A stretch of DNA of 10,176 nt from the NCBI GenBank assembly GCA_005801425.1, contig SYDY01000051.1:1-10176 (forward strand), in the 5' to 3' direction. Shown piece by piece: positions 1-7,420 of this stretch. The notes beneath the pieces are model-generated. The model saw only the letters and a list, made by a program, of their open reading frames with translations. It did no database searches and had not been told where the DNA came from. This DNA is from Bdellovibrionales bacterium. GTDB lineage: Bacteria; Myxococcota; XYA12-FULL-58-9; SYDY01. The position numbers were made by a program, and so were the translations under genes. How positions within the stretch are numbered: position 1 is the stretch's first letter; the number at the start of each line of letters is the position of its first letter.

Positions 1-2118
1 AGAAAGATTGGTCGCTGTTGGCGCATCATTGACAGCAATACCTGTCATCGCTTTCGAACCCGTTGCCGCAGCCGCCACGCCATCGCTTACGCTGGTGGCG
101 ATGGTAAAGCTGCTGCTAAAGTTGGTTGCCGGCGTGAAAGTAACGCTTGCAAGAAGTGTATTCACGTCCGCGATGACACCACCTGCTGTCCAAACCCCTG
201 TGCCAGCATTGTAGGTTGACGTGACAGCGCCTGATGTTGCCGTGCTCAAAGCTCCCGCAGATGGATTGGAAAGTGTAAGGGTCGCTGTCACCGCCACACT
301 ATTGGAAGTAGACACCACAATATCCACCAGATTCCGTGTGGTGTCCTCGGTATATGTTTCAGCCGCCGAAAGATTGGTTGCCCCAATTGGAGAAATGACT
401 ATCAACGATGCGGTATCTGTTTCCGTGGAAAAAGAAGTTACTCCGCCGTTTGGAGCCACTGAAGCAACCGTGCCATTCACTCCGGTTGCCCTATCCCAAG
501 CGCGAAATGTTATCGCGTTCGTTAACGTACCGCTGAATCCCGAGTTAGGCTGAAAATAGACCCGCGTCGATGCATCGGCAGCAAGCAATCGCGCATTCGT
601 ATGAGACATCGTGCCTATTGCTGTCCACAAGGTGCCATTGTCGAGCGAATAAAACCAACTGCCGCTGGTGGTTGAAACCGCAGTCACCGCAATGCCAAGT
701 TGAGCACCGAGATCCGAATCTGTCACATTGTCGTTTCCCCCAGAAGGAAGCGTAAAATCGACGAGACTGGAAACCAATGTTCCCACCGCACCGGATGGTG
801 CACTGGCATTTTGATTGACCGCTGGAAGTGTGGGAGATCTGCTTGCGTCAAGCACGGGCGCACTATTTGCAATCGGATTTGTTGGTGCAAGAACAATTGT
901 TTGTGTTGCCCCAACACTCGCATTATTGGACGCCGTCGCCGTGTATGTGGATGTTGTTCCCGTTGTTGTGAGCTCAATGTTGTTTCCTTCCATGGATACG
1001 CCCTGGCTTCCTAACGAGCTGCTTGCAATATCCACTTCCTCCGTCATGCCTGGCGGCGGTGTCCATGGGGCGGAGCTGGCAAAAGTGTGAAACGTGAGCA
1101 GCATATTTGCAGCTGTCGTGCTAACACTTGGTGCTGTGTGCTGTGTACCGTTTGCTGTGGCTGTACCACTGTAGGTCGCAATGGGGTTCGTCGTCGTGGC
1201 ATGGATGTACGCTTGGATCGCGCCAACCACACTGGAAGTCCCATTTGACATCGTCCATATATACGTCGAGGGTTCTGAAACACCGGATACTTTAAAGTAT
1301 GTTGCAATGGAAATGCCTTCGGAGGAACTGTTGTCGATGCGTTGAATAAGTGTCCAACCGGTTGGTGGGGTTAAAATGGTCGTCGATGGACTGAGGCTTA
1401 ACGCCGCAATTATGACATCGTCGGTTGTCGTGCCAGTAGGACGGGACAACGTAAGTGAGCTACCCGTTCCATCGACCGAACTTGCTGTAGCACTTCGAAA
1501 AGATATTTTTGGAAAAACAGTGATCGACGCGGTGTCCGTTGCGGTTGAAAACGCGGTGGCGGCACCGTTGGTTGTTGTGTCGACCGAACTTCCGTTTGAA
1601 CCACTGGTTTGATCCCAAGCCCGAAAGGTAATTCCGGAAGAGACAGTCCCCGAATAACCGCTGATGGGTTCAAAATAGAGAGAGGTGTTTGAATCCGCCG
1701 AAAGCAAACGAGACGACGACCCCGACACAGTCCCCATGCTATTCCACGTCGTACCGCCATTGATTGTGTAATGCCATGTTCCATTGGTTTCATCGGTACT
1801 GGTAACCGCAATTCCCAAGAGTGCGCCCGAGTCAGAATCAGTTACGTTGTCCACTTGACCATCCGGTGTTGCAAAATCAACCAACCCAGAAACACGCGTA
1901 CCGACTGCGCCTGACGGAGTACCAGCGCCAGTGACAACGGGGGTTAGCTCGGGGGTTTTTGCGTTGTAGAGTACCGGAGCGGTGTTCGTGCTTGAAGCCT
2001 GTTCCGAATGGAATACAGGTACATCATTGATTGCTATGCCTGATTCATCTTCTCCACAAGCTGCAACTAAGAGGATGCTGACAACAATGCTTCGTAGATA
2101 GTTTTTTTGTTTGTTCAC
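1..2118 (-). CDS. Giant repeat-rich surface lipoprotein, N-terminal part (runs off left edge)
   Basis: The frame is open without a stop from 2148 down to base 1, giving 706 codons from a GTG at 2118. TGA lies in frame just upstream (2151-2149), and the first in-frame ATG is far inside, so GTG is the only sensible start. The N-terminus (MNKQKNYLRS, a hydrophobic run, then LVAAC followed by GEDES) is a lipoprotein signal with Cys about residue 20. Gly at +2 fits release to the outer membrane. Residues 45-201 and 418-574 are two homologous modules with shared signatures (SGAVGT, DNVTDSD, TFRAWD, DTAS). Residues 202-417 are a separate Ser/Thr-rich beta-type domain. From about 580 a 122-residue repeat starts (ATNLSAAETYTEDT) and begins again at the window edge. 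Such modules are known from large cadherin- or Ig-like bacterial surface proteins, often adhesins. The adhesin role is inferred. No strong ribosome binding site is visible. Confidence 0.88.
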   Translation of the reverse strand, partial: MNKQKNYLRSIVVSILLVAACGEDESGIAINDVPVFHSEQASSTNTAPVLYNAKTPELTPVVTGAGTPSGAVGTRVSGLVDFATPDGQVDNVTDSDSGALLGIAVTSTDETNGTWHYTINGGTTWNSMGTVSGSSSRLLSADSNTSLYFEPISGYSGTVSSGITFRAWDQTSGSNGSSVDTTTNGAATAFSTATDTASITVFPKISFRSATASSVDGTGSSLTLSRPTGTTTDDVIIAALSLSPSTTILTPPTGWTLIQRIDNSSSEGISIATYFKVSGVSEPSTYIWTMSNGTSSVVGAIQAYIHATTTNPIATYSGTATANGTQHTAPSVSTTAANMLLTFHTFASSAPWTPPPGMTEEVDIASSSLGSQGVSMEGNNIELTTTGTTSTYTATASNNASVGATQTIVLAPTNPIANSAPVLDASRSPTLPAVNQNASAPSGAVGTLVSSLVDFTLPSGGNDNVTDSDLGAQLGIAVTAVSTTSGSWFYSLDNGTLWTAIGTMSHTNARLLAADASTRVYFQPNSGFSGTLTNAITFRAWDRATGVNGTVASVAPNGGVTSFSTETDTASLIVISPIGATNLSAAETYTEDTTRNLVDIVVSTSNSVAVTATLTLSNPSAGALSTATSGAVTSTYNAGTGVWTAGGVIADVNTLLASVTFTPATNFSSSFTIATSVSDGVAAAATGSKAMTGIAVNDAPTATNLS
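16..381 (-). repeat. First unit of a 122-aa tandem repeat in the surface lipoprotein
   Basis: The unit starts at ATNLSAAETYTEDT (381 downward) and ends with MTGIAVNDAPT. The next unit starts at base 15 with ATNLS, which gives a period of 366 bp. Internal phrases (TATLTLSNPSAG, TSTYNAGTGVWTA, FTIATSVSDGVAA) resemble the widespread cadherin-like tandem units of giant bacterial surface proteins. Only one complete unit lies inside the window. The array presumably continues to the left. Confidence 0.75.
397..867 (-). repeat. Module copy 2 (157 aa) of the surface lipoprotein
   Basis: Residues 418-574 of the lipoprotein. It begins NSAPVLDAS and ends DTASLIV. It is exactly the same length as copy 1 and has the same motif order (SGAVGT, LVDF, DNVTDSD, LGIAVT, RLLAADA, YFQP, TFRAWDRATG, DTAS). 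The copies have diverged, so this is an old duplication rather than a recent one. Confidence 0.85.
1516..1986 (-). repeat. Module copy 1 (157 aa) of the surface lipoprotein
   Basis: Residues 45-201 of the lipoprotein. It begins NTAPVLYNA and ends DTASITV. It shares length and spaced motifs with copy 2 at 397-867, with roughly half of the positions identical by eye. The motif order is SGAVGT, LVDF, DNVTDSD, LGIAVT, a GTW-type aromatic stretch, RLLSADS, YFEP, TFRAWDQTSG, DTAS. This order is typical of beta-sandwich repeats in large bacterial surface proteins. Confidence 0.85.
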
Positions 2119-2592: not shown

Positions 2593-5469
2593 ATGGTGCC
2601 ACCCAAAAAGATCACGGGAGCTGATCCCAGCGTTCCACCAGTACATTCTGGAAATCCTCCACCTCCTCCACCAAGACTTAAACATGACAAAGACCAAGTA
2701 GATCCCACAAAACCCAAAGGCATCCCTCCACCACGCCCCACGTTGCCTCCACAGGCATCAGCCAGCGCTACCCCTATGCCACCCCGCCGCCATGCCCCAC
2801 CCATCCCCCATCACGCTCCGCCCTACACGCGCGAAGAAATCCTTGCGCGCCTCACGGTCGATGGCAAACACATGCCTCATGCAGAGCAACGGGCTCTGGC
2901 CAGGGATCTGGAACAAATCGATATTTTCCGAAGATCCGATCCGTGCCAAGATAAAAACCTCGATACACTCTCCATCGATGACCCGCGCTTGGGCGAACCC
3001 AAAGAATACATGTATCGCCTCCTCATGCTTGCCAAGATAAGCACAATCGCAGAACATATTCCGGGCGGGCACAAACCCCGCGATACGCAAATGATCCCAG
3101 TGTTACAGTTTCTCGATGGCAAGCGTCGTCTTTCTGAAATCAAAACAGGCCAAGGTAAAACACTTATTTCGGCCATGACGGCCATTGCCCAAGTGAAGAT
3201 CCTCAAATCAGAAGTTCATGTGGTGGCTTCGACAGAAAATCTTGCGCGAAGTGCCCCCAGAGAAACGCAAACATTATTCGATGCATGCAACGTCAGCGTT
3301 GGTTTTCTTGATGATCAAGGGGGTCCCTTTGCCGTGTCCTATGGGACGTCGTTTGATTTTGAATCGGCAATGCTCAGCGATATGGATCCACGGAACAAAA
3401 TAAAGCGCATAAGCCAGGGTGCCGCTGCAGTGGTGGCAGCGTTGCATGAAGCCCTCGATGCGCTCGCGCATGCAGTGCCCGCATGGAAACCGGCATGCAA
3501 TTTACAAAAAGCAGATCACACAAAAATTGATGCTTTTATTGCCCGCTGTCGCACGCTTTCTGATTCAAGCAATCCCAAAGTAAACAGTGCACTTAATACC
3601 CTCGCAGTACTCAGCAACCGCTTGCATGGACGTCGCTTTGTCATGATCGACGAGTGTGATCATCACCTGATCGATCAAGCCACAGCGCGCGCACGCATGA
3701 GCGACCCCGATCCCGACAAAGAAACCATCAAGCAATTCACTGAAATTATTGCTGCCGAAGTTACTGCGTACTACAGCGAGGGCAAAGCACACATCCGCGG
3801 TGCTGAAAAGGCATTGCATGCCAAGATCCAAAGCCTCGTCGAACGACACATCAGCGAAGATCCGTTGCTACGCACCCGCTGGGAGACAGAACACGAAACA
3901 TGGATCAAGAATGCCCTTGAGGTGCTTGATCCCAATCCAAACAACGAATGGCGCGATGGTGTGAGTTTCGTTCTGCAGAGACCCGCACTTGACGAACTGA
4001 TGGAACTAACAGCCGCACCTGCCCTTCGAAAACATCTCGAGAAATCACTGGGCACCCTTGCGAGTGCTCTCGAAGAGCTTGGAAAACGCGGTGGAAAAGC
4101 ATCGCCCATACACACATCGGCCAATGAAAAAGCGATCGTGACCCAACTGACTGCTATCGCAAAAATACTCGATGGATCTGACGTGAAGGCTTCTCTTACG
4201 GCCGAACAACGCTCACTCGCCATACGTATCACTGAACTTAAGGATCGTATCACCGAGATTATTCGCATCAATGATCTCATCGATCGCAGCACCAAAGCGA
4301 CTGTTCCACGCACCCATGTATTTGAAATCATGCGAGAGCCCCAGGTACTTTATCTTGACGTGGCAACGGGTCAGATCATCGATAAAATGAAATTCAGTGG
4401 CATGATCCATCAGTTTCTCGAATACAGGTACTGCGACGGTAAGATCCGAACAGAACCCTCCATGTCACTTCGCGTGCGATCATTTTCATCTTACCTGGCA
4501 ACCGCCCAACAGGTCGTCGGGGTTTCTGGGACATTGGGCGATCGTGATCCCGAAGTACTGCATTTTCTTAAAAAGGCATGGGGTTTTGAAGAAACCATCG
4601 GTATTCCTGAATTTTGCGCGTCGCGTTTGCGAGAAGAGCCTGCGATCAAATGTGCTGATCGCGACATGTGGATCAATGCCGTTGCGGATCAGATCCTCGC
4701 ACATCCTGATCAACCTATCCTTGTGATTGCCCAAAATCCTGAAGATGCGCATTATTTGCTCGAAGGCCTTAAAAGAATACGCCCTGGTGCGGTGGCACTT
4801 TACGAAACATCCGCGGATGAACACCTGTTGACCCGAAAGCTTCGTCCTGGCGATATGATTGTATCAACCAACCTAGGCGGGCGCGGCAGCGATTACAAAG
4901 TCGATCTTGATCATGCGCCCAAGGGACTTCACGTCATTGTAGGATTTGATACCGACGAAATGCGCATTATGCGACAGGCCCAAGGCCGTGCAGGTCGTGC
5001 GGGGCAACCTGGAAGCCATCAGAAGGTTTTCAATGAAACGCTTAAGCAAAAACGCGACCCAAGTGAGATCGTTGCAAGTTTGGCAAGCGTCATGGAAGAA
5101 GATCTATGGTGTGACGTGTATCGCGTGTTCAGTGAATTGGTCACGCAGCTTGCCCAAGATCCCAAAACACAAAACGAAGAACATCGCGTTAAGCGACAGA
5201 TCATGGCCTGGTTAAGCAATCCCACAAGTCACGATACAACAGCAAAAATTTTAAAAAAAGCCATCAAAGCCGAGAACGGCGAACCCTTTGCAAGAGCGCT
5301 ATTCACCGAAATAACAACCATGCTTCGTGCTGAGCCAACGGCAAGTACGATCCTTCGGGATTATGAGCGAGGCTTCGTCGAAAGTCTTGCGACTTTGGTT
5401 AATAAAAACTTGGTTCGTTTGCATGCGCTCGAACGGGTGCGGCATCCAAAGCGTTTTATTCTTTTTTAA
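2593..5469 (+). CDS. Divergent SecA-like ATPase with proline-rich N-terminus
   Basis: About 958 aa from ATG 2593, which has GGAG three bases upstream. GTG 2584 (961 aa) is an alternative start. Residues 3-78 are proline-rich with a PPPPPP run and no signal peptide. The motor motifs follow SecA order: Walker A EIKTGQGKT (182-190), VHVVAST (about 208), DECD plus HHLID (353-361), WIKNAL (437-442), LDVATGQ and GMIHQFLE (588-610), VSGTLGD (644-650), STNLGGRGSD (758-767), GLHVIVGF, and QGRAGRAGQPG (797-807). Residues 365-575 occupy the place of SecA's preprotein cross-linking domain but look mainly helical and charged. After residue 810 there are about 145 helical residues and no C-terminal zinc motif. 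SecA drives preproteins through SecYEG with ATP. The SGTLG motif recalls non-housekeeping SecA-like proteins I know from scattered bacteria and some eukaryotes. Cytosolic ATPase activity is likely; substrate and partner are unknown. Confidence 0.88.
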   Translation: MVPPKKITGADPSVPPVHSGNPPPPPPRLKHDKDQVDPTKPKGIPPPRPTLPPQASASATPMPPRRHAPPIPHHAPPYTREEILARLTVDGKHMPHAEQRALARDLEQIDIFRRSDPCQDKNLDTLSIDDPRLGEPKEYMYRLLMLAKISTIAEHIPGGHKPRDTQMIPVLQFLDGKRRLSEIKTGQGKTLISAMTAIAQVKILKSEVHVVASTENLARSAPRETQTLFDACNVSVGFLDDQGGPFAVSYGTSFDFESAMLSDMDPRNKIKRISQGAAAVVAALHEALDALAHAVPAWKPACNLQKADHTKIDAFIARCRTLSDSSNPKVNSALNTLAVLSNRLHGRRFVMIDECDHHLIDQATARARMSDPDPDKETIKQFTEIIAAEVTAYYSEGKAHIRGAEKALHAKIQSLVERHISEDPLLRTRWETEHETWIKNALEVLDPNPNNEWRDGVSFVLQRPALDELMELTAAPALRKHLEKSLGTLASALEELGKRGGKASPIHTSANEKAIVTQLTAIAKILDGSDVKASLTAEQRSLAIRITELKDRITEIIRINDLIDRSTKATVPRTHVFEIMREPQVLYLDVATGQIIDKMKFSGMIHQFLEYRYCDGKIRTEPSMSLRVRSFSSYLATAQQVVGVSGTLGDRDPEVLHFLKKAWGFEETIGIPEFCASRLREEPAIKCADRDMWINAVADQILAHPDQPILVIAQNPEDAHYLLEGLKRIRPGAVALYETSADEHLLTRKLRPGDMIVSTNLGGRGSDYKVDLDHAPKGLHVIVGFDTDEMRIMRQAQGRAGRAGQPGSHQKVFNETLKQKRDPSEIVASLASVMEEDLWCDVYRVFSELVTQLAQDPKTQNEEHRVKRQIMAWLSNPTSHDTTAKILKKAIKAENGEPFARALFTEITTMLRAEPTASTILRDYERGFVESLATLVNKNLVRLHALERVRHPKRFILF

Positions 5470-6625
5470 TCTCAGGCACACCACCCAAGCGAAACAGCGC
5501 AAGGGTTCCATTGCCAACGAGCACAGAAAGCACATCGCCATCGGCGCCCATGCCACCTTCGATACGCGATCCTAAAAATGACGCTTGCAACGGTTTCCCC
5601 TCTTTGGCGTCAAAGACAAGCAAACCGTTGTCACCCGCCGCAAACGCGATCGTGCCACGATGTACATGCAAGATCGAAATCGGCCCCGAGGCAAAAGATG
5701 TTCGTACCAATTTATGTCCATCGGAGGCATTAAGAAGCAAAAGCACTCCCTCGGCACTCACTGCAATCACGCGTTCACCATCAAGTGCCATCGCAACCAC
5801 TGCACGCTGCGGCAAACGCCAAGTTACGCGTCCATCGTCCAATGCCATTGCAACCACGCCATCGCTGTAGCTTGCCGTATACACCCGATCGTCCGAACAC
5901 ACGGGGGTTGCATCCACATCACGAAATTCGCCTTCGCCTGAAATGCGCCGCGTCCACAAGGCGGTTCCGGTTTTTGCTTCATAGGCACTGACAGACCCAT
6001 CCACATAGCCCGTCACCACACGATCGCCACAGACCGTGATCCCACTATGTCCATAAATCGTTAAACCACGAGGTTCTGGACCATTCAGGCTCCAGCGTGT
6101 TTCGCCTGTATCACCCGCGACAGCGACCACACGTCCCTGGGATGTTTGCAAAAAAATCATATCCTCCCAGGCGGTAGGAGGCGCCAACACCAATCCCTTA
6201 AGTGCTATTTCCCATGACGTTTCGCCGCTGGCAGGATCAAGGGCAGAAAAAGATCCTGAAAGTCCTCCCACCAACAGGCGTTCAATCCCACCGACCTTCA
6301 CAAGTCCCAAGGCACTTGCAAAAGGTGTTTTAAGTAGACGACGCCATACGATTTCACCGGTCGTGATGGATCGCGCTTCGATATCACCATCGGCTGTTGC
6401 GATATACACATGCCCGCGCGCCACCGATACCGCCGGGTTCCCCATGGAAATATCCGATTGTCGATATTCGCCGGTGCGTATGACAGGTTTTTGCCAGCGC
6501 TTTGCGTATACCCACTGGGAACTGACATCAAGCCATTGCTGATTTTCGCGCCTGGGTCCGGGCATCGACATGGCGGCCACATCGAATCCACACAGACAAA
6601 CCAAAACAGTCACAAATATTTTCAC
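5456..6625 (-). CDS. BamB-like PQQ beta-propeller protein
   Basis: 389 aa from GTG 6625, whose start overlaps the stop of the upstream gene (GTGA), so the two are translationally coupled. Residues 1-18 (MKIFVTVLVCLCGFDVAA) form an export signal. Cys10 and Cys12 lie too early and in the wrong context for a normal lipobox, unlike E. coli BamB, which is a lipoprotein. About eight blades follow with PQQ-type phrases (DGDIEARSITTGEIVW, SGSFSALDPASGETSW, GRVVAVAGDTGETRW, GSVSAYEAKTGTALW, DGVVAMALDDGRVTW and weaker later ones). BamB is a scaffold of the outer-membrane protein assembly complex, and the position after a YfgM-like gene supports that. Other PQQ propellers bind redox cofactors, but no dehydrogenase catalytic part is present. 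Its 3' end overlaps the convergent SecA-like gene by 14 bp. The function rests on fold and synteny, so the gene symbol is withheld. Confidence 0.8.
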   Translation of the reverse strand: MKIFVTVLVCLCGFDVAAMSMPGPRRENQQWLDVSSQWVYAKRWQKPVIRTGEYRQSDISMGNPAVSVARGHVYIATADGDIEARSITTGEIVWRRLLKTPFASALGLVKVGGIERLLVGGLSGSFSALDPASGETSWEIALKGLVLAPPTAWEDMIFLQTSQGRVVAVAGDTGETRWSLNGPEPRGLTIYGHSGITVCGDRVVTGYVDGSVSAYEAKTGTALWTRRISGEGEFRDVDATPVCSDDRVYTASYSDGVVAMALDDGRVTWRLPQRAVVAMALDGERVIAVSAEGVLLLLNASDGHKLVRTSFASGPISILHVHRGTIAFAAGDNGLLVFDAKEGKPLQASFLGSRIEGGMGADGDVLSVLVGNGTLALFRLGGVPEIKKE

Positions 6626-7407
6626 GGTTTATTCTCAGCAGGAACAGGGGCAGGTGCAACAGGTGCGGGTGCAGGCACAGCACTGCCAAGCTGTTGACGC
6701 AAGCCGGCAAGCAAGCCACCCACGGAAGATTCTGCACTTACATCACCCAGTGCGTTCAAGACCGTGCGAGCTTCATCGGCACGCCCTGCATCGGCAAGCA
6801 GCCGTGCGCGACGGTACCCTGCCATACGACGAAATTCGCTATCTTTCTCGCTGAGGCCACCCTCAAGTTCCCCATAGGCTGCGGTAGCACCCTCGACATC
6901 GCCTTTTTCAGCTTTGAGCTGGGCAAGACGCTCCACCGCAAAAAAGCGAAGACTGTCTTTGGGTTCCAATGCTTTGATCAGACCTTCGAGAGCGGCTACC
7001 GCACCCTCTTTGTTGTCCAGGTGAATGCGCACATCGGCCACATACAGCGTCGCGAGATGCCCCACATCTCCGCCTGCCGCCATGACGGCCTCAAATTTAG
7101 GAAGTGCAGCCTGCCATTTTTCTGCCTCTGTGGCATACAAGAGCGCCTCTTTGGCATCCCCTGTGGCAGCGCCAACACGAGCGTCATAATGTTCCATCGC
7201 AATACGAAACAGTTCGTTGGCCTCGGCCCGATCCTCATCTCGAACATGCGACCATAAAGCCGTTGTCAGAGAAATAACGGCAAGCACCCCGATTGTAAGG
7301 CCTGCAAGACGTCGATGGTCCCCAACCCAGCTTACCGACGCCACTGCGGAGCTTCCCAAGGTATCTTCTCCGCCCAAAAGCACTTTACGATTTTTTTTGT
7401 ATGACAT
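6622..7407 (-). CDS. YfgM-like membrane-anchored TPR protein
   Basis: 261 aa from ATG 7407, chosen because GGAGG (7420-7416) sits eight bases upstream. A GTG at 7416 lies inside that site and is unlikely. Residues 1-33 are polar and basic, 34-52 form one transmembrane helix (LAGLTIGVLAVISLTTALW), and 58-230 are alpha-helical with TPR-like repeats (ALPKFEAVMAAGGD, AVAALEGLIKAL, ATAAYGELEGGLSEKD, ARLLADAGRADEARTVL). The C-terminus is a Pro/Ala tail. This matches the layout of YfgM/TPR_21 proteins: short cytoplasmic end, single anchor, periplasmic TPRs. In E. coli YfgM associates with SecYEG and periplasmic chaperones, and its gene lies directly before bamB, as here. The family call rests on architecture and context, because this helix-rich class diverges quickly. 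Confidence 0.72.
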   Translation of the reverse strand: MSYKKNRKVLLGGEDTLGSSAVASVSWVGDHRRLAGLTIGVLAVISLTTALWSHVRDEDRAEANELFRIAMEHYDARVGAATGDAKEALLYATEAEKWQAALPKFEAVMAAGGDVGHLATLYVADVRIHLDNKEGAVAALEGLIKALEPKDSLRFFAVERLAQLKAEKGDVEGATAAYGELEGGLSEKDSEFRRMAGYRRARLLADAGRADEARTVLNALGDVSAESSVGGLLAGLRQQLGSAVPAPAPVAPAPVPAENKP

Positions 7408-7415
7408 GAGGACCA

Positions 7416-7420
7416 CCTCC
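7416..7420 (-). promoter_or_regulatory. Ribosome binding site that sets the yfgM-like start
   Basis: GGAGG on the minus strand, eight bases before ATG 7407. It overlaps the alternative GTG at 7416-7414, which therefore cannot use it. It is the strongest Shine-Dalgarno sequence seen in the window. Confidence 0.75.

What the first reader, a model, noticed from the sequence alone, without database searches (positions are those of the whole stretch)
2593..5469. Stand-alone SecA-like motor with a non-SecA substrate region
All core SecA ATPase motifs are visible in order, but the place of the preprotein cross-linking domain holds about 210 helical, charged residues. There is no C-terminal zinc motif, and the MTGTA motif of housekeeping SecA is VSGTLGD. 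This suggests an accessory export motor or a repurposed nucleic-acid or protein-remodelling ATPase. It sits divergently beside a giant lipoprotein.
Basis: partly seen in the sequence, partly recalled or inferred. Interest (0 to 1): 0.72.

Follow-up and report, generated by a model that had tools for sequence, protein, structure and literature searches.

The report
Symbiont-type SecA-like motor, unrecognisable substrate clamp
Besides its normal protein-export motor SecA, this bacterium carries a second SecA-like ATP-driven motor whose nearest relatives are poorly understood proteins of intracellular symbionts, and whose substrate-handling part can no longer be recognised.

Summary
The ORF at 2593-5469 (958 aa) is real and encodes a SecA-family SF2 ATPase with all catalytic motifs. 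It is not the housekeeping SecA: the C-terminal third of that gene, with its zinc motif, lies on contig C114, where the assembly breaks. It does not score as SecA2 and is not of the secondary SecA_DEAD type. A tree places it, on a very long branch, with the eukaryotic/symbiont-type SecA-like proteins of Rickettsiales, Chlamydiota, a 0.5-Mb Myxococcota and others (support 100/97; grouping with housekeeping SecA rejected, p-AU 0.0002). GTLG and GLHVxxxF...QAxGR are that clade's signatures, so the odd motif is explained. New relative to the clade: the slot of the preprotein cross-linking domain (aa 361-584) shows no detectable similarity to its relatives, in which that domain is still recognisable. 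There is also an extra insert before motif II, a proline-rich N-terminus, and only ~150 residues after motif VI. Best reading: a catalytically competent motor uncoupled from SecYEG, working as a soluble protein-remodelling ATPase, possibly an effector; function is inferred. New variant of a known, functionally uncharacterised kind.

The parts
2593..5469 (+). SecA-like ATPase gene, 958 aa
   Evidence: open frame, PF07517, fold match to SecA
2593..2817 (+). proline-rich, predicted disordered N-terminus (aa 1-75)
   Evidence: 34% P in aa 1-80; pLDDT about 35
3142..3162 (+). motif I / Walker A KTGQGKT (aa 184-190)
3394..3621 (+). insert before motif II (aa 268-343)
   Evidence: absent or much shorter in the aligned relatives
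3649..3660 (+). motif II DECD (aa 353-356)
3673..4344 (+). slot of the preprotein cross-linking domain (aa 361-584), unrecognisable
   Evidence: hhalign Prob 3.4 against relatives' slot; no Pfam family; helices at low confidence
4345..4371 (+). return strand VLYLDVATG into the motor
   Evidence: aligned with VxxIDxxTG of relatives
4525..4539 (+). motif III-type SGTLG (aa 645-649)
4867..4893 (+). motif V TNLGGRGSD (aa 759-767)
4975..5013 (+). motif VI QAQGRAGRAGQPG (aa 795-807)
5014..5466 (+). short helical C-terminal tail (aa 808-958) in place of scaffold, wing, finger and zinc tail
   Evidence: no SecA_SW match; helices in the model

Best explanation
A second, non-housekeeping SecA-family motor of the eukaryotic/symbiont type. 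Shown: an SF2 SecA motor with its catalytic residues (K189, D353, E354, R764, R799/R802); kinship with SecA-like proteins of intracellular bacteria rather than with housekeeping SecA or secondary SecA_DEAD proteins; a PPXD slot changed beyond recognition; no recognisable scaffold/wing domain or zinc tail. Inferred: ATP binding and hydrolysis open and close NBD1/NBD2 as in SecA, but the stroke is passed to the insert and the C-terminal tail, not to SecYEG, so the protein acts as a soluble protein-binding, unfolding or remodelling ATPase. Guess: by analogy with the relatives it may act on another cell, with the proline-rich tail as a docking segment and the genome's T6SS as a possible route.
For: Best blastp partners are Rickettsiaceae MAG L031 (2.5e-22), Megaera plasmid protein (4.9e-20) and Parachlamydiales L033 (3.2e-19); housekeeping SecA of same-order genomes gives about 1e-4 to 1e-8 (separate searches, so only roughly comparable). 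Tree 100/97 with that clade, p-AU 0.0002 against housekeeping and against secondary SecA_DEAD. Top 27 VIA-align entries are SecA/SecA2. Relatives' slot against ordinary PPXD Prob 99.8, window slot against relatives Prob 3.4. Relatives lie in giant proteins of symbionts and in one case directly behind an ankyrin-repeat ORF. Literature: PMC3639933, PMC9680635, PMC3482391. One SecY; T6SS genes.
Against: Very long branch (5.0 and 6.6 in two trees), so its place inside the clade is unsure; at most 24% identity to any row. It shares only the motor with the symbiont proteins. The 3.4-Mb genome and absence of VirB4 and T3SS/flagellar gate matches do not point to an intracellular life. Neighbours look like housekeeping genes. 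I found no published activity for any member of the clade.
Confidence: 0.55

Rival explanations
1. A highly diverged accessory (SecA2-like) export motor that still works with the housekeeping SecYEG on a few special substrates, with the insert as a specialised substrate receptor.
For: SecA2 models match both motor halves (TIGR03714 58.5 bits, TIGR04397 58.7 bits). SecA2 structures are among the best fold matches, Z 26.3 for 6sxh. Many SecA2 systems use the ordinary SecYEG (general knowledge), so one SecY does not exclude it.
Against: Scores far under the SecA2 cut-offs; no SecA_SW match and only 151 residues after motif VI; nearest relatives are symbiont SecA-like proteins.
Confidence: 0.15
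2. A secreted effector that acts inside a eukaryotic or bacterial partner cell, as proposed for SecA-like domains of Amoebophilus effectors.
For: Relatives occur in intracellular bacteria, one directly behind ankyrin repeats; SecA-like domains listed among Amoebophilus effectors (PMC3482391); the genome has TssB, TssC and a TssM-like gene; no transmembrane segment.
Against: No secretion signal or effector marker identified; neighbours are housekeeping-like; codon composition like that of the neighbours; no T4SS VirB4 or T3SS gate found.
Confidence: 0.25
3. A nucleic-acid motor: a SecA-like core that has been turned into a helicase or translocase on RNA or DNA.
For: SF2 fold; DEAD-box helicases and DinG also match the model (Z about 20).
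Against: SecA structures match clearly better; no nucleic-acid-binding domain found.
Confidence: 0.07
4. A decaying or functionless gene.
For: Long branch; no close relatives found; the other seven genomes of the class lack a match at E <= 1e-8.
Against: 958-aa open frame with all catalytic motifs intact and codon positions like those of the neighbours.
Confidence: 0.08

Closest known systems
Eukaryotic/symbiont-type SecA-like proteins (Wolbachia wBol1_1091/1092, Amoebophilus Aasi_1610/1144, insect and protist homologues: PMC3639933, PMC9680635; here Megaera, Bandiella, Rickettsiaceae, Parachlamydiales)
   Same: Motor motifs, GTLG, GLHVxxxF...R...QAxGRxxRxGxPGS, and the same side of the tree, 100/97. 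The Wolbachia and eukaryotic sequences were not compared here; that the symbiont proteins are the same group is inferred from the published description.
   Different: Compact single protein rather than a much longer multi-domain one; PPXD slot unrecognisable; extra insert before motif II; proline-rich N-terminus; 3.4-Mb genome.
Housekeeping SecA (TIGR00963)
   Same: SF2 motor fold and catalytic residues.
   Different: 58 bits against a cut-off of 800; no PPXD, SW or zinc-tail match; the genome has another secA.
SecA2 accessory translocases (TIGR03714, TIGR04397, TIGR04221)
   Same: A second SecA-like motor; motor halves match.
   Different: 51-59 bits against cut-offs of 725-1085; C-domain missing; one SecY.
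Secondary SecA_DEAD domain proteins linked to type I secretion-like genes (PMC4452313; I take rows L039, L040, L043-L046 to be of this kind from their length and missing wing domain)
   Same: SecA motor that has lost most of the wing/scaffold domain.
   Different: They keep an ordinary PPXD and TNMAGRGTD; separate clade, p-AU 0.0002.

Membership tests
SecA superfamily | SecA_DEAD domain and motifs I, II, III, V, VI in order | tested here: met
   PF07517 51.2 bits, cut-off 24.6; motifs; Z 27.9 to the SecA motor
Eukaryotic/symbiont-type SecA-like clade | groups with symbiont SecA-like proteins, apart from housekeeping SecA | tested here: met
   100/97; p-AU 0.0002 against housekeeping; long branch, exact place unsure
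Eukaryotic/symbiont-type SecA-like clade | GTLG and GLHV...QAxGR signatures | tested here: met
Eukaryotic/symbiont-type SecA-like clade | PPXD-like slot related to that of other members (seen here, not a published criterion) | tested here: not met
   Prob 3.4, while relatives match ordinary PPXD with Prob 99.8
Housekeeping SecA | PPXD (PF01043) and SW (PF07516) domains | tested here: not met
   no match at E <= 0.1
Housekeeping SecA | equivalog score over cut-off | tested here: not met
   58.1 bits against 800
SecA2 accessory translocase | equivalog score over cut-off | tested here: not met
   58.5 against 930 (TIGR03714), 51.5 against 725 (TIGR04221)
SecA2/SecY2 system | dedicated second SecY | tested here: not met
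   one SecY match in the genome; assembly has gaps
Secondary SecA_DEAD proteins | clade membership | tested here: not met
   p-AU 0.0002
Secreted effector | delivery into another cell | not testable with these tools
   only indirect signs: T6SS genes, relatives' hosts

The most novel reading that the evidence does not exclude
A SecA motor that has exchanged its preprotein clamp for an unrelated helical domain and left the Sec pathway, used by a Myxococcota bacterium as a soluble protein-remodelling ATPase, perhaps directed at another cell.
Probability: 0.25. Interest if true: 0.65.

Novelty: new variant of a known kind. Interest (0 to 1): 0.4.

Why it matters
Eukaryotic/symbiont-type SecA-like proteins occur in many intracellular bacteria and, by published work, in insects and protists, but I found no report of a biochemical activity. 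This member is small and carries no attached toxin or repeat domains, so it could be expressed and tested, unlike its very long relatives. It would show whether the SecA power stroke can be used without SecYEG.

Tried and rejected
Anti-phage defence protein: no PADLOC match. Phage protein: one SecA-like PHROG of unknown function, weak matches to short records labelled Listeria phage, no close match in IMG/VR. 'It is the only SecA, since PF07517 finds only it in the genome': rejected, because TIGR00963 finds the housekeeping C-terminal third on C114. A known domain in the slot: none in Pfam; two structure predictions stayed near or under pLDDT 50 there, so I ran no fold search on the insert-only model. 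Searches over the phylum (n = 120, 300, 400) and over 80 relatives gave no answer from the machine, so absence elsewhere in the phylum is shown only for the 38 other genomes. The viral structure library gave only general helicase-like matches.

Full report
WHAT IS THERE. The frame 2593-5469 (+) codes for 958 aa without interruption. ATG at 2593 follows GTGGAG; a promoter-like pair ends at 2562, but such pairs are no more frequent here than in shuffles. Pfam gives SecA_DEAD (1.4e-13, over its cut-off) and weaker P-loop_SecA, DEAD and Helicase_C matches; PPXD (PF01043) and SW (PF07516) do not appear at E <= 0.1. NCBIfam SecA and SecA2 models recognise the motor at 46-75 bits, far under their cut-offs.

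ANATOMY. aa 1-75: proline-rich, modelled as disordered. About aa 80-264: first part of NBD1 with KTGQGKT. aa 268-343: an insert that is absent or much shorter in the relatives. aa 353: DECD. aa 361-584: the slot where SecA holds the PPXD. aa 585-612: return into NBD1. aa 645: SGTLG. About aa 665-807: NBD2 with TNLGGRGSD and QAQGRAGRAGQPG. aa 808-958: 151 helical residues. AlphaFold2 models most of the motor at pLDDT about 70-94 and leaves aa 364-629 mostly under 50. A second prediction, of aa 343-660 alone, reached a mean of 50, with seven helices and no beta core in the slot. VIA-align lists SecA or SecA2 as its 27 best entries (Z 21-28), then DEAD-box helicases at about 20.

NOT THE HOUSEKEEPING COPY. 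PF07517 finds only this protein in the genome. TIGR00963, however, finds a 260-bit match on C114. That contig begins with 118 bp of 71% GC sequence in which the SecA frame is closed, then runs on from LRGRSGRQGDPG to the zinc motif CPCGSGMKYKKC. The fragment is 56-61% identical to SecA of four same-order genomes. The rest of that gene is missing from the assembly. I read this as an assembly break; it is not proven.

KINSHIP. In 38 relatives' genomes nearly all matches are weak hits to housekeeping-type SecA; the exception is a 1,258-aa ORF in a 0.5-Mb genome. Its contig length and ORF agree with the record 'Myxococcales bacterium nzgw261' (L037), which is why I take the window's phylum to be Myxococcota. 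The other seven genomes of the class have no match at E <= 1e-8. Plasmid records gave SecA-like proteins of Candidatus Megaera and Bandiella; the genome scan gave Rickettsiaceae, Parachlamydiales, a Rickettsia endosymbiont, a Neisseriaceae MAG and others. In the careful tree the window stands with the symbiont proteins (100/97). A group of window plus housekeeping SecA is rejected (p-AU 0.0002), and so is window plus the short secondary SecA_DEAD-like rows (p-AU 0.0002). The window's branch is very long, so its position inside the clade is unsure, and the AU test shares the model's pull between long branches. SecA2 and eukaryotic sequences were not in the tree.

THE SUBSTRATE SLOT. In the relatives the slot is still a PPXD: their profile matches that of the short SecA rows with Prob 99.8 (the compared stretch includes motor flanks), and PF01043 hits L038, L042 and L031 over or near its cut-off. 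The window's slot against the relatives' profile gives Prob 3.4 and no credible Pfam match. The compared stretch from before motif II to after GTLG is also the longest in the window, 318 aa against 180-259 in the symbiont rows. Comparing a single sequence with a profile is less sensitive than comparing two profiles, so replacement and extreme divergence cannot be told apart here.

PUBLISHED CONTEXT. The Wolbachia wBol1-b genome paper described two long secA genes with insect and protist homologues and two Amoebophilus relatives, separate from bacterial SecA (PMC3639933); wAlbB-Uju has similar ones (PMC9680635). SecA-like domains are listed among Amoebophilus effectors (PMC3482391). Secondary SecA_DEAD proteins that lost the wing domain and lie near HlyD and M50 genes are a different kind (PMC4452313).

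HOW IT MAY WORK. Shown: motor, catalytic residues, kinship, loss of a recognisable PPXD and of the C-domain. Inferred: ATP-driven closure of the two NBDs moves the helical parts and acts on proteins without SecYEG. Guess: action on another cell. For the guess speak the relatives' hosts, the ankyrin-repeat neighbour of L038 and T6SS genes in this genome. Against it speak the housekeeping-like neighbours, codon composition like theirs, and the lack of VirB4 and FHIPEP matches.

VERDICT. The unusual motif is explained by a known clade. The unrecognisable substrate slot and the compact form are what is new.

Noticed in passing
L027 (G000:C114) 1-118: 118 bp of 71% GC sequence, unlike the 50% GC of the rest, cap the contig and cut the housekeeping secA; probably a chimeric contig end.
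   Followed up: partly
L038 2-4498 and 4570-7782: In a Neisseriaceae MAG a 1,071-aa SecA-like ORF directly follows a ~1,500-aa ankyrin-repeat ORF on the same strand.
   Followed up: partly
L029 1-7910: A Candidatus Megaera plasmid carries two genes annotated SecA-like side by side, one of them about 15.7 kb long.
   Followed up: no
L047 and L048: Two IMG/VR contigs carry SecA-like ORFs of about 3,560 aa; possibly symbiont DNA labelled as viral.
   Followed up: no
window 1-2118 (-): Putative lipoprotein (lipobox SILLVAAC), at least 706 aa, with a weak tandem-95 repeat match, cut off by the contig end.
   Followed up: no
window 5456-7416 (-): A bamB-like gene and a TPR_21 gene overlap by 4 bp; the bamB-like stop overlaps the end of the SecA-like gene by 14 bp.
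   Followed up: no
L050 (G000:C77) 8404-12328 (-): T6SS genes TssC (VipB), TssB (VipA) and an IcmF-like gene in the window's own genome.
   Followed up: partly
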